From Begonia masoniana (lineage: Eukaryota > Streptophyta > Magnoliopsida > Cucurbitales > Begoniaceae), in assembly GCA_022432975.1 (NCBI GenBank), contig CM039505.1, positions 21,831,338 to 21,895,337 of the forward strand: a DNA stretch of 64,000 nucleotides, in the 5' to 3' direction. The position numbers and the translations under genes are program-made. Shown here piece after piece: positions 2,768 to 48,267 of the stretch. How positions within the stretch are numbered: the first letter of the stretch is position 1; the number at the start of each line of letters is the position of its first letter. The notes beneath the pieces were generated by a model. The model had not been told where the DNA came from. It made no database searches and saw only the letters and a program-made list of their open reading frames with translations.

Positions 2768-2769
2768 AA

Positions 2770-2781
2770 TGGTATCAGAGA
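2770..2781 (+). promoter_or_regulatory. Primer-binding site, copia body A
   Basis: TGGTATCAGAGA lies two bases after LTR 1 and is complementary to the 3' end of initiator tRNA-Met, the usual copia minus-strand primer. The last base departs from the commoner TGGTATCAGAGC. Confidence 0.9.
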
Positions 2782-7550: not shown

Positions 7551-7564
7551 GGCAAGTGGGAGAT
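7549..7564 (+). promoter_or_regulatory. Polypurine tract, copia body A
   Basis: GGGCAAGTGGGAGAT directly precedes the middle LTR, the expected place and composition for the plus-strand primer. Confidence 0.8.
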
Positions 7565-9688: not shown

Positions 9689-9690
9689 AA

Positions 9691-9702
9691 TGGTATCAGA
9701 GA
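9691..9702 (+). promoter_or_regulatory. Primer-binding site, copia body B
   Basis: TGGTATCAGAGA again lies two bases after an LTR end, so the middle LTR is also in 5'-LTR context for body B. Confidence 0.9.
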
Positions 9703-14100: not shown

Positions 14101-14470
14101 AGATGATCGAAAGTCGATATCTGGATTATTATTTACTCTTGGTGGTGGAGCCATTGTTTGGAGAAGTACCAAACAAGGAGGAGTTTCTGATTCGACTATG
14201 AAAGCCGAGTACATAGCTGCTTCAGAAGCAGCTAAAGAAGCTGTTTGGCTCCACAAGTTCTTTAATGATCTGGAAGTTGTTCTAGATATGAATAAACCAC
14301 TCACACTTTATTATGATAATAATGGTGCAGTGATGAATTCTAAAGAACCGAGAAGCCACAAAAGATCAATGCATATAGAAAGAAATCCCTTGACCAAGAC
14401 GTTGTCTGCAAAGAGTTTTGATAAACATCTTGAACGACTAGGGATTAGAGACATGTCTCATTTGCTTTAG
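11103..14470 (+). pseudogene. Ty1/copia gag-pol, copy B (broken)
   Basis: Same gene as copy A. Gag starts at 11103 and loses frame near 11250. The zinc-knuckle-like motif is near 11329, protease WIIDSGATNHVC at 11461, and integrase occupies an open stretch at 11774-12529 ending at TAG 12530. The frame resumes to TGA at 13070, and RT shifts near 13321 (one extra T) and 13357. A long open stretch at 13409-14470 carries the rest of RT (YVDDILLIGN near 13561) and RNase H. The TAG, TGA, the RT shift near 13357, the gag deletion and the RNase H deletion are shared with copy A. The RNase H end jumps from HIERN to PLTKTL where family members normally have a few dozen more residues. Confidence 0.93.
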
Positions 14471-14484
14471 GGCAAGTGGGAGAT
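14469..14484 (+). promoter_or_regulatory. Polypurine tract, copia body B
   Basis: GGGCAAGTGGGAGAT sits directly before LTR 3, identical to the tract before LTR 2. Confidence 0.8.
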
Positions 14485-16607
14485 TGTTGGAAATAATGTG
14501 CCCAACAAGCAAATGTTATGAACATTTTTATTGCTGTAATTAATAAATAAATTTTATGATTAATTTTTATGTTTGCATTATTCGATATGCTTTATAAATT
14601 CAAAGAAAATCCTTGATTATTTGTGCAATTTTAAATTTACATATATGTTGATATATGTGGGATTAAATTTAAAAAGAAATAATCACAATAGTCCATGACT
14701 TATATTTGAAGTATAGGATCTTCAAATTAATAAAGTCATAAATACAGTTCACTTCGTTGAGAAAGTATAGTCAAATCCCGACTATATATGTAGTGACATA
14801 AAGTGATTGTATTTTATAATATGATTATATAGGACTGGACCAGATAAAATTATATTGTTCTTATAATATCCGTTGAATGAAGAACAATTAATTTTATCAT
14901 AATGATGGTCATATATGTATGATCTTAATTCATTGTATTTAGTAGACTCCTATTTCATTATAATTTATTCTTTGATTTACTCGGTACAGTTTTGTATGAG
15001 TTACATTACATAAACCTTGTATTTTGGGAATAAATTAAATGAGTAGCTGGGAATGCTAACATTGATACAATAAAATCCATAATACAAGATTCCCTTCTTT
15101 GTTAGTTCAGGGATTGAATAATTAGCGCGCAAATTCATAAATGTTATGAATTAATTATTCAATCAAGAACTAATGGTAGTAAAGGATAAAGATGTAATAT
15201 GAGAAGTTAACGGATTTTATACCTAACTCTATTACGAATCTTAATGGAGGATTAATACATATGTAATGACTATATCAATGGACATTACTTTGAGTAAATA
15301 TACTCTATAGTTCTAAGAGTGCAACTCTAGGTATTTAGTTGAATTACTCTAGAGTTAATAATTGTGTTATTTAATATAAAGAGTTTATATTAATTAACAA
15401 ATATTATTGGAGCTTAGAACTATAGGTCCATCGGTCCCTCTGTTATCTTATATCACTATTTAATTTCCATGTTATAAGAATAAATATATAAATGATTAAT
15501 AATGATTAATCATTTATAAACACTCAAATGAATATATTGTTATTCAAAATATATAAATAGTTTTTATATTTTGAATTCAAAATAAAATATCTCATTAGAT
15601 GAGATATTTTTAAGGGATTTGAATTAGCTTTGAAGAATCTCATCAGATGAGATTTGAATTAGATTTAAAGAATCTCATCAGATGAGATTTGATCTTCAAA
15701 TTTAAAGTGGTTATTTAACAAACTATCAAATCAGATTTTTTGAAGTTTGAATAAAAGTAGATCTGGAAAATCTGATTAGATTAGATTTGATCTACGATTG
15801 ACTTATAGTTTGTTTAATATTTAAAAGTAGATCTGAATAATCTCATAAGATGAGATTATCTTGAAAAGTAGTTTTCATAAATATATTCTAAAAACTGTTT
15901 TTAGATTATATGATTAATTGATAAATTGATTTATTAGATAAATCAACTGCTAATCAAATTAGATTTGATTAGATATGATTTATTTTTAAAAAAATTAGTT
16001 TTTATTAAAATAAATCTAAAAAATTAATTTCAAAACAGATCTATAAAAATTGTCAAATGTGATTTGATAGGTAGGACAACGAACGACTGAAAAACAAATC
16101 CCTAGAGAGAAAATGTGTGACCTTTCCGTATTCGATTTTAGAAAAACGTTTTCTAAGATCGAAGAGAGACGTCTCATGTGTTGAGAACACGTCTCTCCAG
16201 AAATATAAGAGTGTATTGTTCTTGTAAGAGAGACGCCCACACGTCAGGAGATTTAAGTGTAAAGATCTTCAGAGAAGACTCGACGGTATCAAAGTCTTCG
16301 GGAAAAACACCTGATCCTGAGTTAAAGCTGTTAAGACCAGACGGGAGTACCTGAGTAAAAGCGTTGCTCCAAAAAGGTATTTTCTTTTATTATTTCCCAA
16401 TCTAAATTCTAATAATTTTTCTCAATGTAAATTGTTTACATTTTGAAAAATTACATATTTCTCAAAAATAATATCTTTTAGACTAACGATCCAACTTATA
16501 GTTTTTTGATGATTTTAAAATAGTTTTAAAGTCACAGGGTAACGCATGTCACTATTATTATGAATAATAGTGAATTCTGCCATGCGTAGGGACCTCGAAA
16601 ACCAACA
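14485..16607 (+). repeat. Copia LTR 3 (3', outer)
   Basis: It starts TGTTGGAAATAATG and ends ACCAACA followed by GCGCA. It carries private variants absent from LTRs 1 and 2, including a 5-bp deletion near 16122, which allow the middle LTR to be dissected. Confidence 0.93.
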
Positions 16608-20632: not shown

Positions 20633-20732
20633 NNNNNNNNNNNNNNNNNNNNNNNNNNNNNNNNNNNNNNNNNNNNNNNNNNNNNNNNNNNNNNNNNNNN
20701 NNNNNNNNNNNNNNNNNNNNNNNNNNNNNNNN
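20633..20732. other. Assembly gap (100 N)
   Basis: Exactly 100 N characters, the conventional placeholder for a gap of unknown size. Any sequence joined across it, including the P450 fragment on its right, is of uncertain adjacency. Confidence 0.97.
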
Positions 20733-23263: not shown

Positions 23264-24424
23264 TTAATTAAAATGAAACATACCTGCAACTACGGTAGGC
23301 TGCTCTTCGTTGTCTGCACTATTGAGGGAGAAGATTCTTGGCGATACTCTTGTGAGTCCTTTGTTCTGTGTCGGGCAGTCTCGAGCAAGATGGCCCTTCC
23401 TATTGCAAACAAAGCACTGCCCTTTACCTTTCTTAGGACAGTTCCTGGAAAGATGACCTACCTCTTGACACTTGAAACACCTTCCTAGATTCTTCTTTGG
23501 ACAGCCCGTAGAAATATGACCTTGCTCATTACAGATAAAACATCGGCCCGAACCTGCCTTGCACACCCCATCATGGAACTTCTTACACGTTGGGCATTGA
23601 GGGAACTGCGAATATCCCGAGGCACGTTTTCCATTTCCTTGACTAATTTCTTCATCACTCGTCATTTTTGTGCCCCTCGGTGGTTGTTGTTCTTCGTCAC
23701 TTTGTTGAGTCATAGATTCTCTGAAGGGCCTTCTCGACATTTCTCTTTGTCGTTGTAGTTTCATTTCAATATCATCCAGTTCTAACGCCTTGGCCACAAC
23801 CAAATGGTACGGCATGTCGTCGATGCCTGCAGTCTTTACTCCTTTCAGAATCTCCAACTTTAAACCTTCCACAAACTGAAAAACTTTGTCCTGATTGTTG
23901 CCAACCAAAGGACCTGCATAGCGAGATAAAGACTCAAACCTTTGTACATACTCGGCCACTGTTCCCGTTTGGCGTAGTTTGGAAAACTCTGCTCTCTTGT
24001 TGGCTCGGTGAGTGCGACTAAAATACTTGTTGTAGAATGTCGTCTTGAACTGTTCCCACGTCATAACCTTCGTATCCGTAGCGGCCATCACTGTATCCCA
24101 CCAGAAAATGGCATCCTTATCCAAGTTAAATACCGCACATGTTACCTTGTCGGTTTCCTCTACGTTAGCATAAGCAAACATGCTCTCGATCTTGCGAATC
24201 CACTCATCGGCGCAAGTGGGATCCGATGACTGTCCATCGAATGCCGGGGGCCTAAGTCGTCTAAACCTTTCTCCACCTTGGTTCTGAGAATCGTTACCTT
24301 GTCCATTTCGATTTAGCAAAACCCCTATCTGTTATTACTGTTGGCGTAATATGTCAAGAAACTGGCTATTGGGATCCATTCGAGGTTGCTTAGGTACTCA
24401 CGGCCTTTTCTTGTACCTAGACAT
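23264..24424 (-). pseudogene. gag: Ty3/gypsy gag of non-autonomous Y1 element
   Basis: Reading from the minus-strand ATG at 24424, in-frame stops occur at codons 9, 30 and 31. From codon 36 the frame is open for 351 codons to the end. It has the gypsy Gag core (RLRPPAFDGQSSDP, IFWWDTV, WEQFKTTFYNKYF, AEFSKLRQTGTVAEYVQRFE). This is followed by a Cys-rich CPTCKKFHDGVC and three CCHC knuckles: CFICNEQGHISTGC, CFKCQEVGHLSRNC and CFVCNRKGHLARDC. The protein ends at VVAGMFHFN, exactly where protease would begin. Gag binds and packages element RNA into cytoplasmic particles. The early stops are CGA/CAA-to-TGA/TAA type and may be post-insertion decay. Protease, RT and integrase are absent. Confidence 0.85.
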
Positions 24425-26529: not shown

Positions 26530-28875
26530 TGTAATATCCGGCTTGTACGGATTTTAGAGTTAATATATTATATTATTATTTTATCATATAATGTCATTTT
26601 TCGTAAATATGTCAAATCAAATCAGTTTCGCAAACGGAAGGTGTCATTTCGATCCTAACGATTAATAGAAATTTTAAGGAAATTATGGGAATTTCGGAGA
26701 TTAAACGCTATATTCCGTGTAATTACATTTCTCGTAATATAAATGACGTTTTAGTAAAAATAGTAAACGAAGCCCAAACTGCGAACGGATAGTTTTGTTA
26801 AGTCCTAAATAATAGGTTGGACATGTTGGTGAAATAAGGAAGTTTGAGGAAACCGAATCGGTAGTTAATTAACGAAACAAAGGACGAAACAAGAGCTAAG
26901 GGCATTTTGGTAATCTACCAAACCAATTTTATAAAATCATAAGTGTTTCTCTTCTTCTTCATTTTCTTCTCTGGCCGTGAGAAACAGAACCTTCTCCCTC
27001 GCAATTTCTCTCTCGGCCGTGGGCGATTCTCCTCCGATTCGCGCTCCGTTTTGTTTCGTTTTCTTCGTGATTCTTCCTCCTCTCGCTACCCTAGGTATGA
27101 ACCTACGATCTTAGAGTGTTTACTTCGATTTCTACGGAGTTGGAATAAATAGGGTTTCGTTTAGGTTTCGTTAAAAATCAAGATTTAGGGTTCGAAATTG
27201 ACAGGTTGTTATAGTTTAAGGACGTATTGAACGTATTAAACGTTATTGGACGAAGTTAAATTGAATTGTGGAAAAATGTTAAATTTGAGAATTTAGGGAT
27301 TTTCAGGAAAAGTTCGTAAGTTGTGGTTTTGAACTATCGAGCATGAATTGGTCGTTTAAACGTCTCGATTAGTTAAGTTAGAACTTTAGGAAAGTTCCTT
27401 AGTCAAGGTTTTGTTGAATTCGGACGATTAGAAGTTTAAACACGTGATATTGATGATCGTTGTGTTTTGCCTCAGACAAACAACGCTCATGGACGGAGCT
27501 TGAGCTGCAACAGACGCGAGGTAAGTTCTCGTGATCTTCTCTGGCCGATTGGCCTACACCGTACTTCGATGTAGCGTCGAGGATCTCAATGGATTGTTTG
27601 TTTTAAATTGCTTTGGTCGGGTAGATAGGTTTATAATTGTTGTAGGTTATTCCATTTTAGTCTTGATGGTATGCATGTTGATTGTTTATTTTATGTTCAT
27701 ATCTGTTCATGCATCACGTATTTCAAATGTCATGAAAACGAATTTCTGAACGACGTTTTAAAGTGAATGCAAAGAAATTATATCCCTACGGTATACAGTT
27801 TAAATGACCCTACGGTATATAGTTTAAATGGCCCTTCGGTATACAGTTTATAGCAAAGCAAAGAAAAGCAAAGTAAAGTGAATGCAAAGAAATGATGTCC
27901 CTACGGTATACAGTTTAAATGACCCTACGGTATATAGTTTAAATGGCCCTTCGGTATACAGTTTGTAGCAAAGCAAAGCAAAGTAAAGAAAACAAAGCAT
28001 TATTTGTAAAGTCACATGCACAACATGCATTTGCATTTACTAGAGCTTACTGAGATTTTTATCTCATAGATGTCTGTATGGTGTAGGTGTTTACGAGGAA
28101 ACAGGTGAGGAAGAGCTTCCTCCTCCCGAGGCATGAGTTCAGTTGACGAAGGATGGTTGCAGTGGTGTGCTGGCGCAGTCGATGCTTACCTGACCCGTGG
28201 GGATGTCTGTGTTAGTATTTTGTGGGATTTAATGGATGATACGTATGTATAGACGAACAAGTTAGGATGTTTGGATATGGTTAGATGTTAGGTCCATATT
28301 TGATGTTTTAAACGTTTTTTTGGAAATCTGTTTATAATCCGTGTTTTTATAGTTTTTACTGAAACTGCTTGGAATTTGAAACAGGAGGATTAGACAACTT
28401 TTAAACGTATCCATGCAGTTCGTTTTTACAACAGTTTAACGTATGTTTAGTTTGTTTAATTCATTGATTTATGACATTAGAAATGAGATAAGTTTTGTGG
28501 AGAATAGGTAAGGAAGAAAGTCTCTGGAGTCTCTCGGAATAGCTCTCTGGAATCTAGGATTCCAGAGAGGGATTTGGTCGCTGCACAAGGCAGCGACTGG
28601 TCGCTGCACAATGCAGCGATCGGGCGCTGCACAATGCAGCGATCGGGCGCTGCACACTGCTTCTCTTTTCCTATGCCTTCCGGTTTTACCCTTCACCGAT
28701 TGATAAATGTTTTAATTGTTTTATTAATTATTTTCAAATAGTTTTAAGTTATAAATGATTTTGTTTTAAGTGGTTTACAACGTAGACTTCAATTCCGAAT
28801 TGATTTCCTCTTAAAGTGTAAAATAAAATGAAAAATTTATACGGGTAAAATGAGTACAGTGTCTGGGGTGTTACA
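26530..28875 (+). repeat. Z1 5' LTR
   Basis: Starts TGTAATATCCGG and ends GGGGTGTTACA. TTTATAAAAT near 26928 is a TATA candidate followed by a C/T-rich leader. Repeats of CCCTACGGTATACAG occur in two blocks (27778-27965), whereas the 3' LTR has one block. A hairpin-rich segment lies at 28543-28660. Confidence 0.92.
28543..28660. repeat. Hairpin block in Z1 5' LTR
   Basis: A perfect 12-bp inverted repeat with a 3-base loop (28543-28569) is followed by three short hairpins: stems GTCGCTGC/GCAGCGAC (28577-28597), TCGCTGCA/TGCAGCGA (28601-28619) and CGCTGCA/TGCAGCG (28625-28641). Confidence 0.9.
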
Positions 28876-28879
28876 ATTA

Positions 28880-28891
28880 TGGTATCAGAGC
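28880..28891 (+). promoter_or_regulatory. Primer-binding site of Z1
   Basis: TGGTATCAGAGC four bases after the 5' LTR, complementary to initiator tRNA-Met. Confidence 0.92.
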
Positions 28892-29036
28892 CCCCGGGTT
28901 TTAAAATCGGTTCTGTAGAGTGCTCGACTGCACAGCCACTACGCGGACATCCTTCATTAACTGTAAGTCTGTTTATAGCTTTATTGATTTGGTTTCTTAG
29001 GATTATTGTTTTGATCTTTTATAGGATTTTTATAAA

Positions 29037-29636
29037 ATGGTTCGAGGAAGGGATCCTAGAGATGACGCGCTAGATCGATTTATGGAGTTGATAGATCGCC
29101 AGTCTCAGCATATGGACCGGCAAGCGCAGCAGATTGCGGACTTAGTAAATCGGGAGAACCAGAGGGCCCGGGATTTGATGGTTCCCAACAAGCAGGGCAT
29201 GTAGAAGTTTCAGGGCCTACGACCTCCAGTGTTCGATGGTCGATCATCAGATCCTACTGTTGCGGAGGAATGGATCCGAGTTATGGAGGATATGTTAGCT
29301 TATGCCGAGGTAGGGAACGGGAGCTTGGTGGCGTATGCTACCTTTCACTTAGCGATGGATGCCCGTTTCTGGTGGGATTCGATCAAAGCGACGACGGACG
29401 TATCAGTTATGACTTGGGATCGGTTCAATTTTGTATTTTTTGACAAGTATTTTAACCGCACAGTGAGAGTGGCAAAGAGGAATGAGTTCACGCAGCTGAA
29501 GCAGACAGGTTCAGTTGCGGAGTATATCCGGAAGTTTGAGGCTTTATCGCGATTTGCACCTCGTCTTGTCAACGATATGTATATGATAGCTAAAATATAT
29601 AGATCTGAAATTAGTAAAGAAGAGAGTAATAAGTGA
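29037..29636 (+). pseudogene. gag: Z1 gag, truncated and interrupted
   Basis: ATG at 29037 starts MVRGRDPRDDALDRF, the same N-terminus as the W gag. TAG at 29202 replaces a Gln codon (CAA in W). The frame then gives RPPVFDGRSSDP, ARFWWDSIKATTDVSVMTW, NEFTQLKQTGSVAEYIRKFE and RFAPRLVND. It then jumps into spacer-derived MYMIAKIYRSEISKE and stops at 29636. W continues at this point for over 150 residues including the zinc knuckle, so Z1 has lost the RNA-binding C-terminus through an internal deletion. It is not functional as read. Confidence 0.9.
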
Positions 29637-32065
29637 GTAAGAAGGATTTACTAGGCGAACCTCGAAGAGAAGATAATAGGACACACATATAACAATAAAC
29701 GCCATATAGAAATATAGTTATACATTAGTAGGATTAGTTTGATTTAATCAATGGAGTTTGCACACCTAGGGTTTAGTAACAATTAGAGGAATACACCCTA
29801 TGAGATATGGATTTTAAGTAGGTAGGGATTGTGTCTATATGACAACCTTTTGGAGTATTAGAATACGACTAGTCAAGAAAGATGAAAGTTGAGGAATAGA
29901 CCTATAAAGGGATACATAGATTGTTATAATACCTGAAGTGTGTTTAAATATATCAAGTACCGTAGGGCTCGTATATTGACGATTCGTATGAAGTTAGGAG
30001 TATCTAGATTAAGATAGAATTCAAGAGTTAAACTTAGAATGATTTTCGAGTAGAATAGTTGGAACCTGATTGGAAAGAGCGAACAAAAATAGATTAGTCG
30101 ATGAACTCAAAGTAGCATTGAGGAATTTAGTGAAGGTAAAGTAGATCGTTGGAATAAATGAGAGCTTAGATTGGCGTTTAAAGGATAACAAATTGAGAAA
30201 TTTGCGATTTATAGAATAAGGAGGGTGAGAATTATCACCGAAACCATCTAAGTAAACTTAGAGGTGAGATTAAGTTAGTAAATTTCTAGTGATCGACTCG
30301 TGTGTGGCAGGTCGAGACCAAGTAGTGCATGAATGGCTTAGGTTAGAATGACTAGTTTAGAGTGCATCAATGAGGAGATTTAGAGACTTGACCGTGCTTA
30401 GAGCAAATAGAGTTTAAGATAAACAAAGGAGTGTAACGTGAGCAGTGTGAGAACTTTAATTAAGAATATAGTGGTAGAATTTAAGGACAAAACTGAGAAT
30501 GGAAGCGATGTTTATAAGGAAACTCTGGTGACATAGTTCGAGGAGTATGACAGTGTAAGCTTAGTTGTAAAATCCGCCCTGAAGTAATTGGCGGGATTGG
30601 TAAGTTGCCCAGGAAAGTATGTGATCTAGGAGATTTAGTAAGAATTAATGTGTGAGTGAGGATATGTACAATCCAATTGAGAGTAGAGATTTCGAATTTA
30701 AGGCTAGTGTTGGAAGGTATAGTCGACGTTTTGGATTAGAATCGTAGAGATTGACCCTAGGGATGACGAGATCAGAGTTAATAAGAGGAAGTTCGAATTT
30801 TGAGGCTTTATCGCGATTTGCACCGCGTCTTGTCAACGATATGTATATGATAGATAAAATATTTAGATCTGAAATTAGTAAAGAAGAGAGTAATAAGTGA
30901 GTAAGAAGGATTTACTAGGCGAACCTCGAAGAGAAGATAATAGGACACACATATAACAATAAACGCCATATAGAAATATAGTTATACATTAGTAGGATTA
31001 GTTTGATTTAATCAACGGAGTTTGCACACCTAGGGTTTAGTAACAATTAGAGGAATACACCCTATGAGATATGGATTTTAAGTAGGTAGGGATTGTGTCT
31101 ATATGACAACCTTTTGGAGTATTAGAATACGACTAGTCAAGAAAGATGAAAGTTGAGGAATAAACCTATAAAGGGATACATAGATTGTTATAATACCTGA
31201 AGTGTGTTTAAATATATCAAGTACCGTAGGGCTCGTATATTGACGATTCGTATGAAGTTAGGAGTATCTAGATTAAGATAGAATTCAAGAGTTAAACTTA
31301 GAATGATTTTCGAGTAGAATAGTTGGAACCTGATTGGAAAGAGCGAACAAAAATAGATTAGTCGATGAACTCAAAGTAGCATTGAGGAATTTAGTGAAGG
31401 TAAAGTAGATCGTTGGAATAAATGAGAGCTTAGATTGGCGTTTAAAGGATAACAAATTGAGAAATTTTCGATTTATAGAATAAGGAGGGTGAGAATTATC
31501 ACCGAAACCATCTAAGTAAACTTAGAGGTGAGATTAAGTTAGTAAATTTCTAGTGATCGACTCGTGTGTGGCAGGTCGAGACCAAGTAGTGCATGAATGG
31601 CTTAGGTTAGAATGACTAGTTTAGAGTGCATCAATGAGGAGATTTAGAGACTTGACCGTGCTTAGAGCAAATAGAGTTTAAGATAAACAAAGGAGTGTAA
31701 CGTGAGCAGTGTGAGAACTTTAATTAAGAATATAGTGGTAGAATTTAAGGACAAAACTGAGAATGGAAGCGATGTTTATAAGGAAACTCTGGTGACATAG
31801 TTCGAGGAGTATGACAGTGTAAGCTTAGTTGTAAAATCCGCCCTGAAGTAATTGGCGGGATTGGTAAGTTGCCCAGGAAAGTATGTGATCTAGGAGATTT
31901 AGTAAGAATTAATGTGTGAGTGAGGATATGTACAATCCAATTGAGAGTAGAGATTTCGAATTTAAGGCTAGTGTTGGAAGGTATAGTCGACGTTTTGGAT
32001 TAGAATCGTAGAGATTGACCCTAGGGATGACGAGATCAGAGTTAATAAAAGGAAGTTCGAATTTT
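29538..32065 (+). repeat. 1264-bp tandem duplication spanning gag end and spacer
   Basis: Copies 29538-30801 and 30802-32065 start in GAGGCTTTATCGCG within gag and end at GAAGTTCGAATTTT. They differ at only a handful of substitutions. The breakpoints share TTTG, so microhomology-mediated duplication or slippage is plausible. Confidence 0.92.
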
Positions 32066-32615
32066 GTTAGAGATAAAGTTCTAAGTAAATAGCGACTGTA
32101 ACTCCTAGTTTGACTCACATAGACAAGGTAGTATTATAGTCGTATAGTTGCAGAGTATAACAATGAGGACTTAATTAGGAAACCCGTACCGAAATAGTCT
32201 CTGAAGGTCAATAGGTTACCCAGGAAGATAGGTGACAAGGAAATCCTATGGGTGAGGCAGTTACAAGGAATCGTTACCCGAGTGAATATAGAAATATGGG
32301 TCGACACGAGTCTCGACTACTGATGAAGCCAACGAAGTTATAGAGAAGTTTAGGTAAATCAATTGGAGATTTAAGGACTTAACTAAGCTCAGTATTTTAG
32401 TAAGGAAGTGTACGATCAGATCGAAGGTAGAGAATACAAGTTTAAGGCCGATATTGGAGAGTACAGTGGACAGTTTTGGTTGAGAACCACGAAGAGTGAC
32501 CGTAAGTACAAATGATAATCGAGGCGTAAGGCCGCGCGATATGAGACATTAACATCAAAGGCTATATAAGCTAAGTCAAATTTTGTGGACAAAATTCTAA
32601 ATAAGGTGGGTGGAC
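32066..32615 (+). other. Z1 distal spacer and polypurine tract
   Basis: No coding domain. It ends with AAATTTTGTGGACAAAATTC and the purine-rich AAGGTGGGTGGAC before the 3' LTR, matching U and W at the same place. Confidence 0.8.
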
Positions 32616-34845
32616 TGTAATATCCGGCTTGTACGGATTTTGGAGTTAATATATTATATTATTATTTTATCATATAATGGCATTTTTCGTAAATATGTCA
32701 AATCAAATCAGTTTCGCAAACGGAAAGCGTCATTTCGATCCTAACGATTAATAGAAATTTTAAGGAAATTATGGGAATTTCGGAGATTAAACGCTATATT
32801 CCGAGTAATTACATTTCTCGTAATATAAATGACATTTTAGTAAAAAATAGTAAACGAAGCCCAAACTGCGAACGGACAGTTTTGTTAAGTCCTAAATAAT
32901 AGGTTGGACATGTTGGTGAAATAAGGAAGTTTGAGGAAACCGAATCGGTAGTTAATTAACGAAACAAAGGACGAAACAAGAGCTAAGGGCATTTTGGTAA
33001 TCTACCAAACAAATTTTATAAAATCATAAGTGTTTCTCTTCTTCTTCATTTTCTTCTCTGGCCGCGAGAAACAGAACCTTCTCCCTCGCGATTTCTCTCT
33101 CGGCCGTCGGCGATTCTCCTCCGATTCGCGCTCCGTTCGTTTCGTTTTCTTCGTGATTCTTCCTCCTCTCGCTACCCTAGGTATGAATCTACGATCTTAG
33201 AGTGTTTATTTCGATTTCTACGGAGTTGGAATAATTAGGGTTTCGTTTAGGTTTCGTTAAAAATCAAGATTTAGGGTTCGAAATTGATAGGTTGTTATAG
33301 TTTAAGGACGTATTGAACGTATTAAACGTTATTGGACGAAGTTAAATTGAATTGTGAAAAAATGTTAAATTTGAGAATTTAGGGATTTTCAGGAAAAGTT
33401 CGTAAGTTATGATTTTGAACTATCGAGCATGAATTGGTCGTTTAAACGTCTCGATTAGTTAAGTTAGAACTTTAGGAAAGTTCCTTAGTTAAGGTTTTGT
33501 TGAATTCGGACGATTAGAAGTTTAAACACATGATATTGATGATTGTTGTGTTTTGCCTCAGACAAACAACGCTCGTGGACGGAGTTTGAGCTGCAACAGA
33601 CGCGAGGTAAGTTCTCGTGATCTTCTCTGGCCGATTGGCCTACACCGTACTTGTATGTAGCGTCGAGGATCTCAATGGATTGTTTGTTTTAAATTGCTTT
33701 GGTTGGGTAGATAGGTTTATAATTGTTGTAGGTTATTCCATTTTAGTCTTGATGGTATGCATGTTGATTGTTTATTTTATGTTCATATCTGTTCATGCAT
33801 CACGTATTTCAAATGTCATGAAAACGAATTTCCGCACGACGTTTTAAATTGAATGCAAAGAAATGATGTCCCTACGGTATACAGTTTAAATGACCCTACG
33901 GTATATAGTTTAAATGGCCCTTCGGTATACAGTTTGTAGCAAAGCAAAGCAAAGTAAAGAAAACAAAGCATTATTTGTAAAGTCACATGCACAACATGCA
34001 TTTGCATTTACTAGAGCTTACTGAGATTTTTATCTCATAGATGTCTGTATGGTGTAGGTGTTTACGAGGAAACAGGTGAGGAAGAGCTTCCTCCTCCCGA
34101 GGCATGAGTTCAGTTGACGAAGTATGGTTGCAGTGGTGTGCTGGCGCAGTCGATGCTTACCTGACCCGTGGGGATGTCTGTGTTAGTATTTTGTGGGATT
34201 TAATGGATGATACGTATGTATAGACGAACAAGTTAGGATGTTTGGATATGGTTAGATGTTAGGTCCATATTTGATGTTTTAAACGTTTTTTTGGAAATCT
34301 GTTTATAATCCGTGTTTTTATAGTTTTTACTGAAACTGCTTGGAATTTGAAACAGGAGGATTAGACAACTTTTAAACGTATCCATGCAGTTCGTTTTTAC
34401 AACAGTTTAACGTATGTTTAGTTCGTTTAATTCATTGATTTATGACATTAGAAATGAGATAAGTTTTGTGGAGAATAGGTAAGGAAGAAAGTCTCTGGAG
34501 TCTCTCGGAATAGCTCTCTGGAATCTAGGATTCCAAAGAGGGATTTGGTCGCTACAAGTGCAGCGACTGGTCGCTGCAAGTGCAGCGACTGGTCGCTGCA
34601 AGTGCAGCGACTACAGCAACTGATCGCTGCTTCTCTTTTCCTCTGCCTTCCAGTTTTACCCTTCACCTATTGATAAATGTTTTAATTGTTTTATTAATTA
34701 TTTTCAAATAGTTTTAAGTTATAAATGATTTTGTTTTAAGTGGTTTACAACGTAGACTTCAATTCCGAATTGATTTCCGCTTAAAGTGTAAAATATAATG
34801 AAAAATTTATACGGGTAAAATGGGTACAGTGTCTGGGGTATTACA
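32616..34845 (+). repeat. Z1 3' LTR
   Basis: Starts TGTAATATCCGG and ends GGGGTATTACA, followed by CTCTC. It has one CCCTACGGTATACAG block rather than two. Its hairpin block (34548-34630) has different units: GTCGCTGCA/TGCAGCGAC stems with 2-base loops at 34570-34589 and 34592-34611. Confidence 0.92.
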
Positions 34846-39604: not shown

Positions 39605-40584
39605 TGTAACACCCGATTCTTTACGGGATTTTATAAATTAATAATGTAATGGTATTTTTGTAATTTTGTCAATTAGGTCGGTTTCGTGAAAAGAAAGCGT
39701 TATTACGATCCTAATAATTAATAAGGATTTTAAGAAAATTTTGGGAATTTTAGGAGTTTAATGCTAATTTTACGAGAATTACGTTTATCGTAATATAAAG
39801 GATACTCTGGTAAAAATAGTAAACGGGATCCGAATTGCGAACGGACAGTTTTAATGACTAATAATAAATTGGAGCTATTGGTGAAATAAGAGAATTAGGA
39901 GAAACCGAATCGTTAGCTAATTAACGAAACGAAGGACGAAACAAATAGAAAACAAAGGAAGGGCAAAATGGTAAATTGCCAAGTCAATTTTAATAAAATC
40001 ACATTTCTTTTCTTTTCCTTCTTCATTTTCTCTCTGCCCTGCGTGCTTCTCCCTGCGATTCCTCTCCTCTCACGGCGACTCTCTTCCTTCCAACGGCGAT
40101 TCCCCTCCGATCAACCTCCGTTCTTCACGTTTTCTTCATCAATCCTGACCCTAGCTACGATTCTAAGGTTTTAGGAAAGTTTATTTCAATTTTTACGGAG
40201 TTTAAACGATTAAGATTCGTTTAGGGTTTTGTGAAAAATGTGATTTAGGGTTTGAAATCGATAGGTTTACCGTAGTTGTGAATATAACGGACGTATCGAG
40301 CGTATTGGACGAAGGTTGGTCTATCCATTGTGGAATATTAAGGTTTGTTGAAATTTCGAGTTTTGGAAAACTTCGTTAATGGAGGTTTTGAGGTGTCGAG
40401 CGTGAATCGCTAGATAAAAATGCCTCAATGAGTTAAATTAGAGTTTTAGGAAATTTCTTTAGTTAAGAGTTTCATTGGTTTAGATGTTTATTGGTTTAGA
40501 CTCGTTTTAACAACGGATATTGTGAAATTGCCTTAGGTAAACGACGCTCGTGGACGGAGCTAGAAGTTCAACGCGCACGAGGTA
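39605..40584 (+). repeat. U 3' LTR, first part
   Basis: Starts TGTAACACCCG right after the polypurine tract. It is clearly homologous to the Z1 and W LTR starts but diverged. It is split at 40584 by W and continues at 46358, where the Z1 LTR at 27520-27560 reads through the same junction. Confidence 0.9.
40580..40584. repeat. Target-site duplication AGGTA (W, left)
   Basis: Pairs with AGGTA at 46353-46357. Confidence 0.92.
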
Positions 40585-40926
40585 TGTAATATCCGGCTCG
40601 TACGGATTTTGAAAATATTATTATTATATTATATATGACATTTTTGTAAATATGTCAAATCAGGTCCGTTTTACGAAGAGAAAGCATCATGACGATCCTA
40701 ACAATTAATAGGGATTTTAAAGAAATTTAGAGAATTTTCAGAATAATATCGATATATTCCGAGTAAATACGCTTTTCGTAATATAGTTTTAGTAAAAATA
40801 GTAAACGAGGTCCGATTTGCGAACGGACAGTTTTAATAGAACCCAGATAATAAGTTGGATTTATTGGCGAAATAAGAAATTTGAAATGGTCGGAAAAACG
40901 ATAAACGAGGATTAATTAATCGTTAG

Positions 40927-40927
<1 letters not shown>

Positions 40928-40967
<40 letters not shown>
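40928..40967. repeat. (TTA)n microsatellite in W 5' LTR
   Basis: About 13 TTA units. The 3' LTR has fewer (45295-45329). Poly-Asn or poly-Ile frames here are artefacts. Confidence 0.95.
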
Positions 40968-40969
<2 letters not shown>

Positions 40970-41404
40970 AAATAAATAAAAAACAAAAACAACACATTGT
41001 GTTGTTTCTTCACCGCGACCCGAGCACCCGCGACGAACGACGAACGCGAACGGCGAGCGGCATCCTTCCGACGACGACGCGGCTCCGACGACGAGCAGAC
41101 TCCGGCGAGCTGAAGCCAGAGTTCGGCTCGACATTTCCGCGCAAAAACCCGATCGAAAACCGGTGAGTTTATTCCCTGTTCTTGCTCGATTTCTGGCCGG
41201 GATTGGCGAGCTCTGTTGAGCTCCGATCGCCGACCCTTTGTGGCTGTTCTCGGCGTAGTCTTGCCGAGGTTCAAGTCGGCAATGATTGCCGAGCGTTGGT
41301 GTGCCCAATTTGGGCCGAAAACAGGGAATCCCGAATTGGGGATTTCGGGTTTTCGGTGAATAACATCTAAATTTTGGTTAGTTTATGTTAATTAGGTATA
41401 AGAG

Positions 41405-41542
41405 GGCTTCGGCGAGAGTAATTCCAGGTTGGGTGACCTTCCGGGAAGTGCTCTCGCCAAACAAAACCGTGAGGGGAGGATATTGGGTTGCGGCCCAATC
41501 TCCAGAGCGGACAATATCTTGCTGGGAACATGGGTCGTTACA
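41405..41542 (+). repeat. Truncated TRIM/Cassandra-like LTR fragment in W 5' LTR
   Basis: Starts abruptly inside 5S-like sequence (GCTTCGGCGAGAG at 41406) and runs to GGGTCGTTACA, followed by AATGGTATCAGAGCC. It repeats the end of the module at 41823-41991 with few changes. Confidence 0.85.
41406..41458 (+). promoter_or_regulatory. Partial 5S rRNA-derived segment (W 5' LTR)
   Basis: Covers the 3' part of the 5S internal promoter: GCTTCGGCGAGAG, then GGTTGGGTGACCTTCCGGGA, corresponding to the IE and C-box region. The A-box half is truncated. Confidence 0.8.
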
Positions 41543-41544
41543 AA

Positions 41545-41557
41545 TGGTATCAGAGCC
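41545..41557 (+). promoter_or_regulatory. Internal primer-binding site inside W 5' LTR
   Basis: TGGTATCAGAGCC follows the truncated TRIM LTR end inside the W LTR, so the element carries a second, vestigial tRNA-Met primer site. The counterpart in the 3' LTR is 45907-45919. Confidence 0.85.
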
Positions 41558-41614
41558 TGTACCCAACCGGAAATGTGGCCAACGAGGACGTTGGGCCCCC
41601 GAGGGGGGTGTGAT

Positions 41615-41991
41615 TGTGATGACCCAAATATGCACGTATGGATACGATGGCTGCACGAACCGGAACCCGGATGGCGGTACGTCCGCGCGGGCGAACCGGA
41701 AGGTGACAGGTTGTAAAAAGCGGGTCGTCACAATCCCACATCGCTTGGGGAAGTATGTGGAAATGAAACATATGTAAAGAGACCCTTCCAACATAGCAAG
41801 ACGCGTTTTGGAGCACAATTGACAACGGATCCCATAAGAACTCCGAAGTTAAAAGTGCTTCGGCGAGAGCAATTCCAGGTTGGGTGACCTTCCGGGAAGC
41901 TCTCGCCAAACAAAGCCGTGAGGGGAGGATATTGGGCTGCGGCCCAATCCCCAGAGCGGACAATATCTTGCTGGGAAATGGGGTCGTTACA
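41615..41991 (+). repeat. TRIM/Cassandra-like LTR forming the end of W 5' LTR
   Basis: Starts TGTGATGACCC and ends GGGTCGTTACA. The first 117 bases (41615-41731) have inverted ends, TGTGATGACCC and GGGTCGTCACA. Then come ATCCCACATCGCTTGGGG, typical of this TRIM class, and the full 5S-like core. Its terminus serves as the W LTR terminus. Confidence 0.8.
41823..41907 (+). promoter_or_regulatory. 5S rRNA-derived Pol III promoter region (W 5' LTR)
   Basis: The order matches plant 5S rRNA from about residue 30 onward: CGGATCCCAT, AGAACTCCGAAGTTAA (A-box region), GTGCTTCGGCGAGAG (IE), GGTTGGGTGACCTTCCGGGA (C-box) and CTCTCG. The 5S 5' end is absent and several bases differ, so it is not a 5S gene. 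Cassandra elements are known to carry such segments in their LTRs. Whether it binds TFIIIA or recruits Pol III here is inference. Confidence 0.88.
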
Positions 41992-41995
41992 GTTA

Positions 41996-42008
41996 TGGTA
42001 TCAGAGCC
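41996..42008 (+). promoter_or_regulatory. Primer-binding site of W
   Basis: TGGTATCAGAGCC four bases after the chimeric LTR. The sequence downstream (CCCGGGTTTTAAAATCG) matches Z1, so the body is Z-type although the LTR end is TRIM-type. Confidence 0.92.
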
Positions 42009-42155
42009 CCCGGGTTTTAAAATCGATTCTGTAGACTGCTCGACTGCACAGCCACTACGCGGACATCCTTCATCAACTGTAAGTCTGTTTACAACTTTAT
42101 TTGATTTTGTTTCTTAGAGATTATTTGTTTTAAATTTTATAGGAGTTTTATAGAT

Positions 42156-43286
42156 ATGGTTCGAGGAAGGGATCCTAGAGACGACGCGATGGATCGACTT
42201 ACGAAATTGTTGGACCGCCAGTCTCAGCATATGGACCGGCAAGCACAACAAATTACGGACTTGGTGAACCGAGAGAATCAGAGGGCCCAAGACTTGGTAG
42301 TTCCTGGTAATCAGGGTATGCAAAAGTTCCAAAGCCTGCGGCCTCCAGTATTCGACGGTCAATCGTCGGATCCGACACGTGCCGAGGAATGGATCCGGGT
42401 GATGGAAGATATGCTGAGTTATGCAGAGGTCGGCAACGGGAGCAAGGTGGCTTATGCTACCTTTCACTTGGCGATGGATGCCCGTTTCTGGTGGGACTCG
42501 ATCAAGTCGACGACGGATGTATCAGTTATGACTTGGGATCGGTTCAAGTTTCTATTCTTCGATAAGTATTTCAGCCGCACAGTGAGAGTGGCCAAGAGGA
42601 ATGAGTTCACGCAGCTGAAACAAACCGGTTCAGTTGCAGAGTATATCCGGAAGTTTGAGGCCTTGTCGCGATTTGCACCTCGCCTTGTCAGCGATAACGA
42701 GGAGAAGGTACACCAGTTTATGGAGGGCCTTAATTCAGAGATCCGGATGCACGTTGTTGTATCAGGTATTATCGATGTACCATATTCTGACATCACAGCT
42801 AGGGCTTTGGATATTGAGGCCGCCAGAGCTACTTGTGTTAGACCGAGGGAGCCGGCTAAGGGCTTCTTTCGTGAGCTCCATCCTCAGACCCAGAATCAAG
42901 ACTGGCAGCCGAGAGCACAGCAACAGCAACAACAACAAAGAGACGTTAAAAGGCCTCTAGAGGGAGGCAACGATCGAGGGAAAGGCAAGCAGGTACAAGG
43001 TGCTTCTCGGTTACCTCTTTGCCCTAAATGTCAGAGGGAGCACAGGGGACAGTGCAGAGTAGGCATGAATGTGTGCTATTGGTGTGGAGAACCAGGCCAT
43101 TTTGTTAAAGACTGCCCGAATCGAGGTCGAGATCAATCAGGCAGAGATCAACATGGCATGGATCAAAGAAAAGTTGTACCGAGGGTCTTTGCATTCATCG
43201 AGCCTGACAACGCCGACGATGGGGCCCAGCCTTCTACAATTGCAGGTATTATTTTTTTTATTACCTGTACATCGGTATGCATATGA
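42156..43286 (+). CDS. gag: Gag of non-autonomous element W (intact)
   Basis: An uninterrupted 376-residue frame from ATG 42156. The N-terminus MVRGRDPRDDAMDRL is followed by a Gln-rich helical stretch. The gypsy Gag core spans roughly residues 65-215 (RPPVFDGQSSDP, ARFWWDSIKSTTDVSVMTW, FFDKYFSRTVRVAKR, NEFTQLKQTGSVAEYIRKFE). A poly-Gln linker, the Cys-rich CPKCQREHRGQC and one perfect CCHC knuckle CYWCGEPGHFVKDC follow. It ends FAFIEPDNADDGAQPSTIAG plus a short spacer-encoded tail. U continues at the same point into protease. Gag would form particles and bind RNA in the cytoplasm; with no protease it could act only as an uncleaved or trans-processed protein. It is the only intact retrotransposon gene in the window. 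Confidence 0.92.
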   Translation: MVRGRDPRDDAMDRLTKLLDRQSQHMDRQAQQITDLVNRENQRAQDLVVPGNQGMQKFQSLRPPVFDGQSSDPTRAEEWIRVMEDMLSYAEVGNGSKVAYATFHLAMDARFWWDSIKSTTDVSVMTWDRFKFLFFDKYFSRTVRVAKRNEFTQLKQTGSVAEYIRKFEALSRFAPRLVSDNEEKVHQFMEGLNSEIRMHVVVSGIIDVPYSDITARALDIEAARATCVRPREPAKGFFRELHPQTQNQDWQPRAQQQQQQQRDVKRPLEGGNDRGKGKQVQGASRLPLCPKCQREHRGQCRVGMNVCYWCGEPGHFVKDCPNRGRDQSGRDQHGMDQRKVVPRVFAFIEPDNADDGAQPSTIAGIIFFITCTSVCI

Positions 43287-44930
43287 TAGATAAAATATTT
43301 AGAACTGAAATTAGTAAGGAAGAGAATAATAGATGAGTAAGATGAATTACTAGGCAAACCCCGAAGAGAAGACAATAGGACACACATATAACAATAAACG
43401 CCATATAGAAGTATCGTTCTACGTTAGTAGGATTAGTTCGATTTAATCAACGAAGTTTGTGCACTTAAGGTTTAGTAATAATTAGAGTGAATTTATGGCA
43501 GAAATCTTGTGATTCAATTGTGCTTAGAGTTGACAAGGAATTGAGTTAAACAAATGAGTGTAGCGTATGTAGTAAAGGAAAGTCAATTAGTGACTTAGCG
43601 ATAGAACTCATAAAGGTAGTTCAGAGTGAGACAAGATGGTTAAATGATCATCGCTACAATGGGACAAAGATCCTAAGTGGTTAGCGACTTTAGCTTCTGG
43701 TTTGACCCATCGAGACAAGGTATTCTAAGGACATCGTTGTAAAGTGTAGCAACACAAAAAATTAATTGAGAATTTATTAGGAACCGCGAGGTGCCCAAGG
43801 AAGTGTACGGTTTGGATACTGTTGATGGGGAAGTTCTGTGGGCACATTACTAGGGAAATGTACACTCGGGAAACTAGAGTTAAGGCCAACAAAATGATTT
43901 GTGAGGCTAGTTTTGCAACTCTGATGTTTATAAAGAAATTGTTATGACCAATAGGTGAATAAGGTTGGAGTGTAATAGAGATTTAGCGTTAGAATAAATA
44001 ATTTGAGAAGGCTTCGAGAGCGTGAAGTAATTAAGTACGTGTTCGATAGACACAAGATTTAAGGAAGTTAGAAACAAAAGGGACTTAATTCGCGGAATTG
44101 AAGTTGAAAATAAAGGGGAGTTTGGATTGCAACTTGGGTGTTGTTATGAGTCCTTGAACGATGGTCAACGCGATTGATGTCGGAAAGTTGAAGTTATTGC
44201 GAGGATTGAGGATAAGAGACAATCTTTAGTAGAAACAAATTAATAAGTGAGAGAGAGTTTAATGTTTGGGTGGCTAAATGCAAACCAACGCGTGCTCAGG
44301 ACGTCAGGTGACAGGTACACAGTTAGAGGTTATTTGATCAAGACTTAGAGATTTGGTACAATTTGATGCGTAAACTGAAAATGAAGACTATGATTAGGAA
44401 GTTAATGTAGGAACTCGGCTGGTGTGTATCCCGATTATGGGTAGGATTGAAGGAATTCCGTTAAAAATATGTGTTACAGTCCAGAAATTGGAGGAGATTG
44501 AAGGCATTCAATTTGACTGGCGTTAGGAAGCCTAGGTATAGTTCTGACCTAAAGGGACAGCAGAAGAAAGACGTTGATAAAGAATGAATTTTGAAGTTAT
44601 TAATACTAAGAGATTTAATTAGCGAGTGGTTAAGTGAAAGTTGAAAGTTGGTACATTCGCAAGTGTTGAAGTGACAAATATGTTGTCGGGTTAATTAATT
44701 GAGATTTGAGAGTTTGGATTATGCTTAGTACGTGAGAGAGGACGTGTGCGATCAAATCGAAAGTAAGAAATACGAATTTGGGGCCTATGTTGGAGAATAT
44801 AGTAGGATGTTGGTTTAGAACCACGAAAAAGGACCGTAAGTACAGACGATTAACCAAAGTAAAGATGCCACGAGACAGGAGACGTTAATGTCAAGAACTA
44901 TAAGCTGTGGCAAATTTTGTGGACAAAATT
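43287..44930 (+). other. W non-coding post-gag spacer
   Basis: About 1.6 kb without a coding domain. Its start (ATGCATATGATAGATAAAAT through ACACACATATAACAATAAAC) is homologous to the Z1 spacer at 29575. The sense strand is rich in A and G and poor in C, like the other spacers. Confidence 0.85.
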
Positions 44931-44949
44931 CTGAATAAGGAGGGTAGAA
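44915..44949 (+). promoter_or_regulatory. W polypurine tract
   Basis: AAATTTTGTGGACAAAATTC, then AAGGAGGGTAGAA directly before the 3' LTR, as in Z1 and U. Confidence 0.82.
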
Positions 44950-45291
44950 TGTAATATCCGGCTCGTACGGATTTTGAAAATATTACTATTATATTATATA
45001 TGACATTTTTGTAAATATGTCAAATCAGGTCCGTTTTACGAAGAGAAAGCGTCATGACGATCCTAACAATTAATAGGGATTTTAAAGAAATTTAGAGAAT
45101 TTTCAGAATAATATCGATATATTCCGAGTAAATACGCTTTTCGTAATATAGTTTTAGTAAAAATAGTAAACGAGGTCCGATTTGCGAACGGACAGTTTTA
45201 ATAGAACCCAGATAATAAGTTGGATTTATTGGCGAAATAAGAAATTCGAAATGGTCGGAAAAACGATAAACGAGGATTAATTAATCGTTAG

Positions 45292-45331
<40 letters not shown>

Positions 45332-45767
45332 AAATAAATAAAAAACAAAAAACAACACATTGTGTTGTTTCTTCACCGCGACCCGAGCACCCGCGACGAA
45401 CGACGAACGCGAACGGCGAGCGGCATCCTTCCGACGACGACGCGGCTCCGACGACGGCAGACTCCGGCGAGCTGAAGCCAGAGTTCGGCTCGACATTTCC
45501 GCGCAAAAACCCGATCGAAAACCGGTGAGTTTATTCCCTGTTCTTGCTCGATTTCTGGCCGGGATTGGCGAGCTCTGTTGAGCTCCGATCGCCGACCCTT
45601 TGTGGCTGTTCTCGGCGTAGTCTTGCCGAGGTTCAAGTCGGCAATGATTGCCGAGCGTTGGTGTGCCCAATTTGGGCCGAAAACAGGGAATCCCGAATTG
45701 GGGATTTCGGGTTTTCGGTGAATAACATCTAAATTTTGGTTAGTTTATGTTAATTAGGTATAAGAGG

Positions 45768-45820
45768 GCTTCGGCGAGAGTAATTCCAGGTTGGGTGACC
45801 TTCCGGGAAGTGCTCTCGCC
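45768..45820 (+). promoter_or_regulatory. Partial 5S rRNA-derived segment (W 3' LTR)
   Basis: Counterpart of 41406-41458, with the same truncation point inside the 5S promoter region. Confidence 0.8.
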
Positions 45821-46183
45821 AAACAAAACCGTGAGGGGAGGATATTGGGCTGCGGCCCAATCCCCAGAGCGGACAATATCTTGCTGGGAACATGGGTCGT
45901 TACAAATGGTATCAGAGCCTGTACCCAACCGGAAATGTGGCCAACGAGGACGTTGGGCCCCCGAGGGGGGGTGATTGTGATGACCCAAATATGCACGTAT
46001 GGATACGATGGCTGCACGAACCGGAACCCGGATGGCGGTACGTCCGCGCGGGCGAACCGGAAGGTGACGGGTTGTAAAAAGCGGGTCGTCACAATCCCAC
46101 ATCGCTTGGGGAAGTATGTGGAAATGAAACATATGTAAAGAGACCCTTCCAACATAGCAAGACGCGTTTTGGAGCACAATTGA

Positions 46184-46268
46184 CAACGGATCCCATAAGA
46201 ACTCCGAAGTTAAAAGTGCTTCGGCGAGAGCAATTCCAGGTTGGGTGACCTTCCGGGAAGCTCTCGCC
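46184..46268 (+). promoter_or_regulatory. 5S rRNA-derived Pol III promoter region (W 3' LTR)
   Basis: Counterpart of 41823-41907, with A-box, IE and C-box regions in order. A transcript starting here would read out into the flanking U LTR. Confidence 0.88.
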
Positions 46269-46352
46269 AAACAAAGCCGTGAGGGGAGGATATTGGGCTG
46301 CGGCCCAATCCCCAGAGCGGACAATATCTTGCTGGGAAATGGGGTCGTTACA

Positions 46353-46357
46353 AGGTA
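46353..46357. repeat. Target-site duplication AGGTA (W, right)
   Basis: Pairs with 40580-40584. Confidence 0.92.
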
Positions 46358-47845: not shown

Positions 47846-48070
47846 TCAGAGCCACTGCCTAATTAAAAATGTGACCGACGAGGACGTCTGGCCCTAAATG
47901 GGAGGAGATTGTGACAGTCTGCCATTTGGTGGCCAGGAGAGCTTTATGTGAAGGCTCAGCCCATACAATGGGGGTGCACAATCCTACATTGCTTGGAAGA
48001 GTGGAAAATGCATGGTTTATGAGTAGAAGTTCCCCTCCCTCTTTAGTAAAAAGTATTTTAGGCTAACCTC
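47846..48070 (+). repeat. Degenerate TRIM-like internal region and LTR start
   Basis: TCAGAGCCACTGCC begins as a primer site lacking its first five bases (TGGTA). GACGAGGACGTCTGGCCC, ATTGTGACAGTCTGCC and ACAATCCTACATTGCTTGG follow in the same order as the TRIM module within W (41550-41760). Confidence 0.7.
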
Positions 48071-48267
48071 AATAACAAATCTGTGCGGGCTCAGATCCAA
48101 ACTAGACCGTATTATACTATGAGCATTGAGCGACATTACAACATCTTCACAAAAGTGTGAACCTTTTAAAGTGTTGACCGACCTCTCATGGGGTTGACAC
48201 CTAAGAGCCTTGGTTTCCATAAATAGGATTTGAAGTTTCGACTGACCTTCCAAAGCGATCAAGATAT

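What the first reader, a model, noticed from the sequence alone, without database searches (positions are those of the whole stretch)
40585..46352. A gag-only retrotransposon whose LTRs end in a captured Cassandra/TRIM module with a 5S rRNA promoter region
Seen: each W LTR is U/Z-like for its first part, then carries ~590 bases with a truncated TRIM LTR, a TRIM primer site and leader, and a TRIM LTR containing 5S-derived A-box, IE and C-box regions. The body downstream (primer site, gag, spacer, polypurine tract) is Z-type. Both LTRs carry the module and differ by few changes, so the chimera has transposed as a unit. Known: Cassandra TRIMs carry 5S sequences in their LTRs. Inference: an intact Gag and a Pol III-type internal promoter are combined in one mobile unit. 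I know of no described element like this, but I could not search.
Basis: partly seen in the sequence, partly recalled or inferred. Interest (0 to 1): 0.93.

Follow-up and report, generated by a model that had tools for sequence, protein, structure and literature searches.

The report
Retrotransposon with a borrowed Cassandra LTR end
A plant jumping gene that carries only a coat-protein gene has had the ends of both its long repeats replaced by part of a small, unrelated jumping gene (Cassandra) with a 5S-ribosomal-RNA-like switch, apparently by a copying error made while both were being copied together, which points to the so far unknown helper of Cassandra.

Summary
W (40585-46352, TSD AGGTA) is a gag-only Ty3/gypsy element. 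The last 592-593 bp of each LTR are a Cassandra piece: half an LTR, PBS, internal domain and a full 377-bp LTR with a 5S domain (RF00001, 48.3 bits). The genome (795 Mb) holds both parents: a young gag-only family (LTR 2856 bp in one copy, body 99.7-99.8% identical to W in three copies) and an abundant Cassandra. The two junctions lie inside 8-nt (TAAGAGGG) and 11-nt (GGGTCGTTACA) words shared by the parents; random breakpoints give such overlaps at about 7e-5 and 5e-6 to 1e-5. The first junction occurs nowhere else in the assembly; 28 of 30 related loci read have normal LTRs, the other two being W. So W is most likely the founder product of reverse-transcriptase template switching, not a family that 'transposed as a unit'. 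Such joins recur: 9 of 13 further loci have a Cassandra LTR end running into a gypsy leader or gag, one with gag-RT-RH-INT homology. Two papers seen here call Cassandra's helper unknown; these chimeras nominate this gypsy clade. Pol III activity and co-packaging are inferred.

The parts
40580..40584 (.). target-site duplication AGGTA, left
   Evidence: read; same 5 bp at 46353-46357
40585..41991 (+). 5' LTR of W (1407 bp), chimeric
40585..41398 (+). gypsy-family (parental) part of the 5' LTR
   Evidence: 4-5 substitutions against four LTRs of L044/L045; 98-100% in 40 listed genome matches to 40950-41398
41399..41406 (+). junction 1: TAAGAGGG, shared by parental LTR and Cassandra LTR variant b (box A region)
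   Evidence: parents; Cassandra variant b
41407..41542 (+). 3' half of a Cassandra LTR (variant b)
41545..41556 (+). Cassandra primer binding site TGGTATCAGAGC
41543..41614 (+). Cassandra internal domain, with purine-rich end
   Evidence: 94-99% to the genomic Cassandra copies read
41615..41991 (+). complete Cassandra LTR (variant a, 377 bp)
   Evidence: full-length matches of 93-98% in the genomic copies read
41805..41917 (+). 5S-rRNA-derived region in the 5' LTR
   Evidence: RF00001, 48.3 bits; box A 41847 with 2 mismatches, box C with 1 mismatch, spacing 18
41981..41991 (+). junction 2: GGGTCGTTACA, shared LTR terminus
41996..42007 (+). W's own primer binding site TGGTATCAGAGC
42156..43286 (+). 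gag ORF, 376 aa
   Evidence: Pfam PF03732, PF19259, PF00098; 99.2-99.5% over 369 aa to three parental copies
43287..44949 (+). non-coding spacer and polypurine tract
44950..46352 (+). 3' LTR of W (1403 bp) with the same Cassandra piece (45761-46352)
46166..46278 (+). 5S-rRNA-derived region in the 3' LTR
   Evidence: RF00001, 48.3 bits
46353..46357 (.). target-site duplication AGGTA, right
   Evidence: read

Best explanation
W is a recent, single insertion made when reverse transcriptase switched templates between two co-packaged RNAs: that of a young gag-only Ty3/gypsy family and that of a Cassandra with at least two LTRs (variant b, then variant a). Minus-strand synthesis began at the gypsy PBS and copied the 11-nt LTR end GGGTCGTTACA. 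It moved to the identical end of the Cassandra LTR and copied that LTR, the internal domain and half of the next LTR. At the 8-nt word TAAGAGGG it moved back to the gypsy LTR. Completing the cycle put the chimera in both LTRs. The new LTR kept the shared LTR end, so it integrated with a 5-bp duplication. Shown: both parental families, both junctions and their shared words, twin LTRs, TSD, uniqueness at up to 3 mismatches. Inferred: co-packaging, order of switches, enzymes supplied by a gag-pol relative, any Pol III transcription.
For: Parents in the same genome: body 99.66-99.83% and gag 99.2-99.5% identical in three parental copies; listed Cassandra copies that match the whole module are 91-97%. 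28 of 30 loci related to 40950-41398 continue as a normal LTR after TAAGAGGG and the other 2 are W. The junction pattern is found only in W. Overlaps of 8 and 11 nt, against P(>=8) 6.5e-5 to 8e-5 and P(>=11) 5e-6 to 1e-5 for random breakpoint pairs between L044's LTR and arrays L003 or L011. Cassandra with variant b directly before variant a exists (L011; L003 has a, b, b-like, a). Similar joins with other gag lineages: 9 of the 13 other hits of the LTR-end pattern run into a gypsy leader or gag. Precedent in passages read: Onsen LTR recombinants mostly fit the first template switch of co-packaged RNAs (PMC5668417); Angela complexes (PMC1950507, part 1 of 2).
Against: No RNA, VLP or cDNA data. 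Junctions at short shared words also arise by DNA repair. The exact Cassandra donor was not identified: the best listed copies are 96-97%, and the b LTR of L011 has a base that W lacks. Loci L058-L060 show that Cassandra can carry a gypsy-like spacer without any gag, so the spacer alone is not a chimera mark. 10 of the 40 parental matches were not read. The assembly may lack other copies, and copies with more than 3 changes in the 36-nt pattern would be missed.
Confidence: 0.72

Rival explanations
1. The chimera arose earlier and W is one descendant of a small family that transposes with the Cassandra-tipped LTR.
For: Both LTRs carry the module and W has its own TSD. W's 5' LTR differs by 4-5 substitutions from the four parental LTRs compared.
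Against: Junction found only in W with up to 3 mismatches in 36 nt. W's body is 99.7-99.8% identical to three parental copies with normal LTRs. A single founding cycle gives the same twin LTRs.
Confidence: 0.14
2. DNA-level origin: a multi-LTR Cassandra inserted in a parental LTR, deletions at short shared words trimmed both sides, and one later retrotransposition copied the result into both LTRs.
For: Cassandra arrays are common here, and both junctions have short shared words.
Against: Needs an insertion, two deletions (one landing exactly on the functional LTR end) and a further cycle. No 5-bp duplication flanks the module (AGGTA before 41399, GTTAT after 41991). Recurrent joins at the LTR-end/PBS site in other gag lineages fit a replication hot spot better. 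Intermediates were not searched for systematically.
Confidence: 0.1
3. Assembly artefact: Cassandra and gypsy repeats were wrongly joined.
For: Both repeats are abundant and the region is nested.
Against: The same junction appears twice, 4.36 kb apart, in copies differing at 10 places, bounded by a TSD. Misjoined parental reads would not be expected to yield the same twin join.
Confidence: 0.04

Closest known systems
Cassandra TRIM (PMC7215508 and PMC10853983, passages read; Kalendar 2008, Yin 2014 and Maiwald 2021 not held)
   Same: 5S-derived region in the LTR, PBS TGGTATCAGAGC, short internal domain, multi-LTR arrays; the module is a piece of this genome's Cassandra (91-97% to listed copies that match it whole).
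   Different: Cassandra encodes nothing; here its LTR end is joined to a gag-bearing gypsy element and forms the end of that element's LTR.
Gag-only elements: TR-GAG (seen only in search listing, definition recalled) and RLG_Quinta (PMC11302176, passages read)
   Same: LTRs, PBS, gag with zinc knuckle, no pol; presumed to use a relative's enzymes.
   Different: No 5S/Cassandra part of their LTRs is mentioned in what I saw.
Template-switch complex insertions (Sabot and Schulman, PMC1950507, part 1 of 2 read), Onsen recombinants (PMC5668417, passages read) and tandem LTR elements (PMC11899658, passages read)
   Same: Single integration with TSD and near-identical outer LTRs (Sabot and Schulman); recombination during reverse transcription of two packaged RNAs (Onsen).
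   Different: In the cases I read the partners belong to one family; here a TRIM with a 5S domain and a gag-only gypsy element, whose longest shared word in the copies compared is 11 nt.
TRIMp3 (Helenus, Ajax, Cassandra; Kojima 2024, PMC10886601, abstract and discussion read)
   Same: Small-RNA-gene promoter in an LTR.
   Different: W is 5.8 kb and codes for Gag. The paper argues that long LTR sharing between a TRIMp3 and its autonomous partner is unlikely.

Membership tests
Cassandra TRIM | 5S-rRNA-derived region in the LTR | tested here: met
   RF00001 at 41805-41917 and 46166-46278, 48.3 bits
[quoted passage not shown]
   spacing 18; box A 2 mismatches, box C 1 mismatch; the same box A bases occur in genomic copies such as L006
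Cassandra TRIM | PBS TGGTATCAGAGC next to the LTR | tested here: met
   41545, 45907
Cassandra TRIM | no coding capacity, whole element under about 1 kb | tested here: not met
   W is 5768 bp with a 376-aa gag; only the 593-bp module is Cassandra
gag-only (TR-GAG-like) LTR retrotransposon | LTR pair, PBS, intact gag, no protease/RT/integrase | tested here: met
   (RT, RH and INT queries do not match inside W)
Ty3/gypsy lineage | gypsy-type Gag; RT before integrase | tested here: inconclusive
   Gag hits Ty3_capsid; W has no pol. In the related copy L057/L066 the order is gag, RT, RH, INT, and H gives protease, RT and integrase domains
template-switch complex LTR element (Sabot and Schulman) | flanking TSD and near-identical outer LTRs | tested here: met
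   AGGTA; 6 substitutions in 1402 aligned positions
template-switch complex LTR element (Sabot and Schulman) | third internal LTR shared by two complete elements | tested here: not met
   the Cassandra part is incomplete and lies inside W's LTRs
TRIMp3 | active Pol III promoter in the LTR | not testable with these tools
   needs RNA or Pol III occupancy data

The most novel reading that the evidence does not exclude
Cassandra RNA is packaged and copied by the machinery of this gypsy clade. The shared LTR end GGGTCGTTACA and the shared PBS form a hot spot at which Cassandra and gypsy elements repeatedly swap LTR ends, at least once in an element with gag-pol homology (L057), so Cassandra's long-sought helper is a Ty3/gypsy gag/gag-pol system and helper and parasite exchange LTR parts.
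Probability: 0.45. Interest if true: 0.86.

Novelty: new variant of a known kind. Interest (0 to 1): 0.74.

Why it matters
Two papers seen here state that the autonomous partner of Cassandra is unknown (PMC7215508, passages; PMC10886601, discussion section), and the second argues that LTR sharing with an autonomous partner is unlikely. W and the other joins look like physical traces of Cassandra and gypsy RNAs being copied together, so they name a testable helper clade. They also show that a 5S-type promoter module can enter the LTR of a protein-coding element at an 11-nt shared LTR end.

Tried and rejected
(1) 'The chimera is a transposing family': rejected as unproven, because the junction is unique at up to 3 mismatches. 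(2) Dating the capture by the divergence between the half LTR and the full LTR: rejected, because Cassandra variants a and b already differ in genomic arrays. (3) Box A/C motif as evidence: too weak alone; 20 Markov sequences gave 0-5 loose hits each. (4) A reciprocal-junction pattern (440 hits, controls 0) was not specific: many listed matches look like Cassandra's own LTR ends; not used, and its loci L067-L074 were not read. (5) Pattern for gypsy-type spacer followed by the Cassandra internal domain: 90 hits, controls 0. By hand count of the list 73 have an NTTATGG-type spacer (4 of them with one further change) and 17 do not. What lies upstream was seen for five of the 90: L049 has a gypsy LTR; L052 has no match to the parts I compared; L058, L059 and L060 have a Cassandra LTR. 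So it suggests but does not show many more joins. (6) Gag protein search: 3 hits only, uninformative for origin. (7) My 'L044 full' LTR-pair figure used wrong bounds and is ignored. (8) The idea that junction 1 is the 5' end of a Cassandra RNA was dropped once the parental LTR showed the shared word TAAGAGGG. (9) The species was not identified.
Full report

The LTR. The first 814 bp are gypsy-type. From 41399 to 41991 the LTR is Cassandra: the 3' half of an LTR, PBS, a 72-bp internal domain, and a complete 377-bp LTR with a 5S-derived region. A search of the window's own assembly (G000, 795,452,319 bases, 308 contigs) with 41405-41991 listed 85 matches from 40 scored of 3291 candidates. Apart from W they are 85-99% identical, and those that cover the whole module 91-97%. 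The six non-W loci read (L003-L008) are Cassandra elements or arrays without W's LTR part beside them in the joined position. Two main LTR variants were seen. W's half LTR corresponds to variant b (AAGAGGGCTTC) and its full LTR to variant a (AAAAGTGCTTC). Of four arrays or dimers read, L011 has b (with one base different from W) directly before a; L003 has a, b, a b-like LTR, a; L013 is all b where read; L012 shows a.

The parental gypsy family. A search with 40950-41398 listed 40 matches of 98-100% identity (40 scored of 3065 candidates). Loci were cut for 30. Two are W and 28 continue after the word TAAGAGGG as a normal LTR; the other 10 matches were not read. Three parental copies were fetched (L044-L046): body 99.66, 99.83 and 99.66% identical to W; gag 99.2-99.5% over 369 aa; 5' LTR 2856 bp in L044 (the 3' LTR of L044 and the 5' LTR of L046 are about 1 kb longer). 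The 5' LTRs end AAGGGTCGTTACA before GTTATGGTATCAGAGCC. Two have visible TSDs (GTACC in L044, CGTAG in L045).

The junctions. Junction 1 lies in TAAGAGGG, present in the parental LTR (GGTA-TAAGAGGG-ATTG) and in Cassandra variant b (AAGT-TAAGAGGG-CTTC). Junction 2 lies in GGGTCGTTACA, the terminus of both LTRs and the longest word shared by the parental LTR of L044 and the Cassandra arrays L003 and L011. For 200,000 random breakpoint pairs per array, overlaps of at least 8 nt occur at 6.5e-5 to 8e-5 and of at least 11 nt at 5e-6 to 1e-5. The second figure needs care, since LTR ends are constrained and a functional end had to be kept. The 36-nt junction pattern with up to 3 mismatches occurs only in W's two LTRs (2 hits, controls 0); older relatives with more changes would be missed.

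What this means. A single reverse-transcription cycle in which the minus strand switched from gypsy RNA to Cassandra RNA at the common LTR end and back at TAAGAGGG explains these features: identical chimeric LTRs, intact ends, TSD, parental body, and uniqueness. Insertion plus deletions at the DNA level is possible but needs more steps.

Recurrence. A 38-nt pattern (Cassandra LTR end plus gypsy-type PBS spacer, up to 3 mismatches) had 14 hits, controls 0. The 14 loci were compared with the parts of W: W itself; nine others in which a gypsy leader or gag follows (L048 to L055 and L057; gag matches of 35-79% identity in eight, the L048 match being fragmentary, and in L054 only the leader matched, 86% over 188 nt); three in which the Cassandra internal domain follows (L058, L059, L060; the first two from one array); and L056, unclear. 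The gags are far apart, while the Cassandra parts are 88-96% to W's, about as for listed genomic Cassandras, which suggests separate captures; no tree was built. In L049 a Cassandra internal domain and LTR (its first part unlike W's) lie between the 5' LTR and the gag leader; its 3' LTR lacks them and the two LTRs are 99.9% identical over the 861 bp compared, as a late switch would give. In L050 Cassandra LTR pieces lie at both ends of a gag element (92% identical over 196 bp). In L057 the last 65 nt of a Cassandra LTR lie between a gypsy LTR end and the PBS of an element with gag, RT, RNase H and integrase homology; whether its frames are all open was not tested, and no Cassandra part was found in the stretch of 3' LTR read. 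A second, older junction lies in the window itself: the host LTR ends at 47845 and runs into a TRIM internal domain.

Function. Not shown. Over the box A to IE stretch W's full LTR equals the genomic copy L006. Against the published motifs box A has 2 and box C 1 mismatch, with the usual spacing of 18. The first T-run after the 5S region in the 5' LTR is at 42015, beyond the PBS, so a Pol III transcript from there would include the primer site; this is a prediction. Each LTR holds a Cassandra PBS besides the element's own PBS downstream of the 5' LTR, so priming at the inner one could yield daughters with shorter LTRs; also a prediction, not tested.

Literature. The library was searched with TR-GAG, Cassandra/5S, Cassandra/gag, Cassandra/template switching, chimeric LTR/TRIM/gag, TRIM/co-packaging and Cassandra/chimer/Tekay terms (the last listed 20 of 40 papers). 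No description of a gag-bearing element with a Cassandra LTR end appeared in the titles, abstract beginnings and passages seen. The key Cassandra papers of 2008, 2014 and 2021 are not held, so priority is not established. Gao 2016 (section 18 read) reports larger coding relatives for 11 of 289 TRIM subfamilies; the section does not name Cassandra, and its Table S16 was not seen. The clade name Tekay/Del for H and W would be my recollection, not a result.

Noticed in passing
47846-48134: Directly after the end of the host (H) LTR stands TCAGAGCC plus a TRIM-type internal domain (73-74% over 69-70 nt to W's) and a TRIM-LTR-like stretch (its end judged by eye): an older gypsy-to-TRIM junction in the opposite order.
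   Followed up: partly
639-16607: Large tandem duplication: 639-9688 matches 7565-16607 at 99.3%.
   Followed up: no
20633-20732: 100-base run of N (assembly gap) in the region of the U element.
   Followed up: no
26530-34845: Z element with TSD CTCTC; its gag lacks the stretch matching W 42697-43269, and its spacer holds a 1272-bp tandem duplication (29531-32066).
   Followed up: partly
23270-24379 (minus): U element gag with several zinc knuckles where W has one, 40% identical to W's Gag, with two stops near its start; its LTR end GGGGTCGTTACA and spacer GTTATGG equal W's.
   Followed up: partly
L058/L059/L060: Cassandra copies without gag that carry the gypsy-like PBS spacer ATTATGG or ATTGTGG instead of AATGG, possibly marks of past exchange at the PBS.
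   Followed up: no
41615-41730: W's Cassandra LTR begins with a stretch of about 110 bp starting TGTGATGACCC and ending GGGTCGTCACA (imperfect inverted ends); copies L049, L056 and L058 show no match to the first 94-99 bp of this LTR, so it may be an insertion or an exchanged part.
   Followed up: no
L003:185-395: A piece of W-type leader (86%) on the opposite strand abuts a four-LTR Cassandra array.
   Followed up: no
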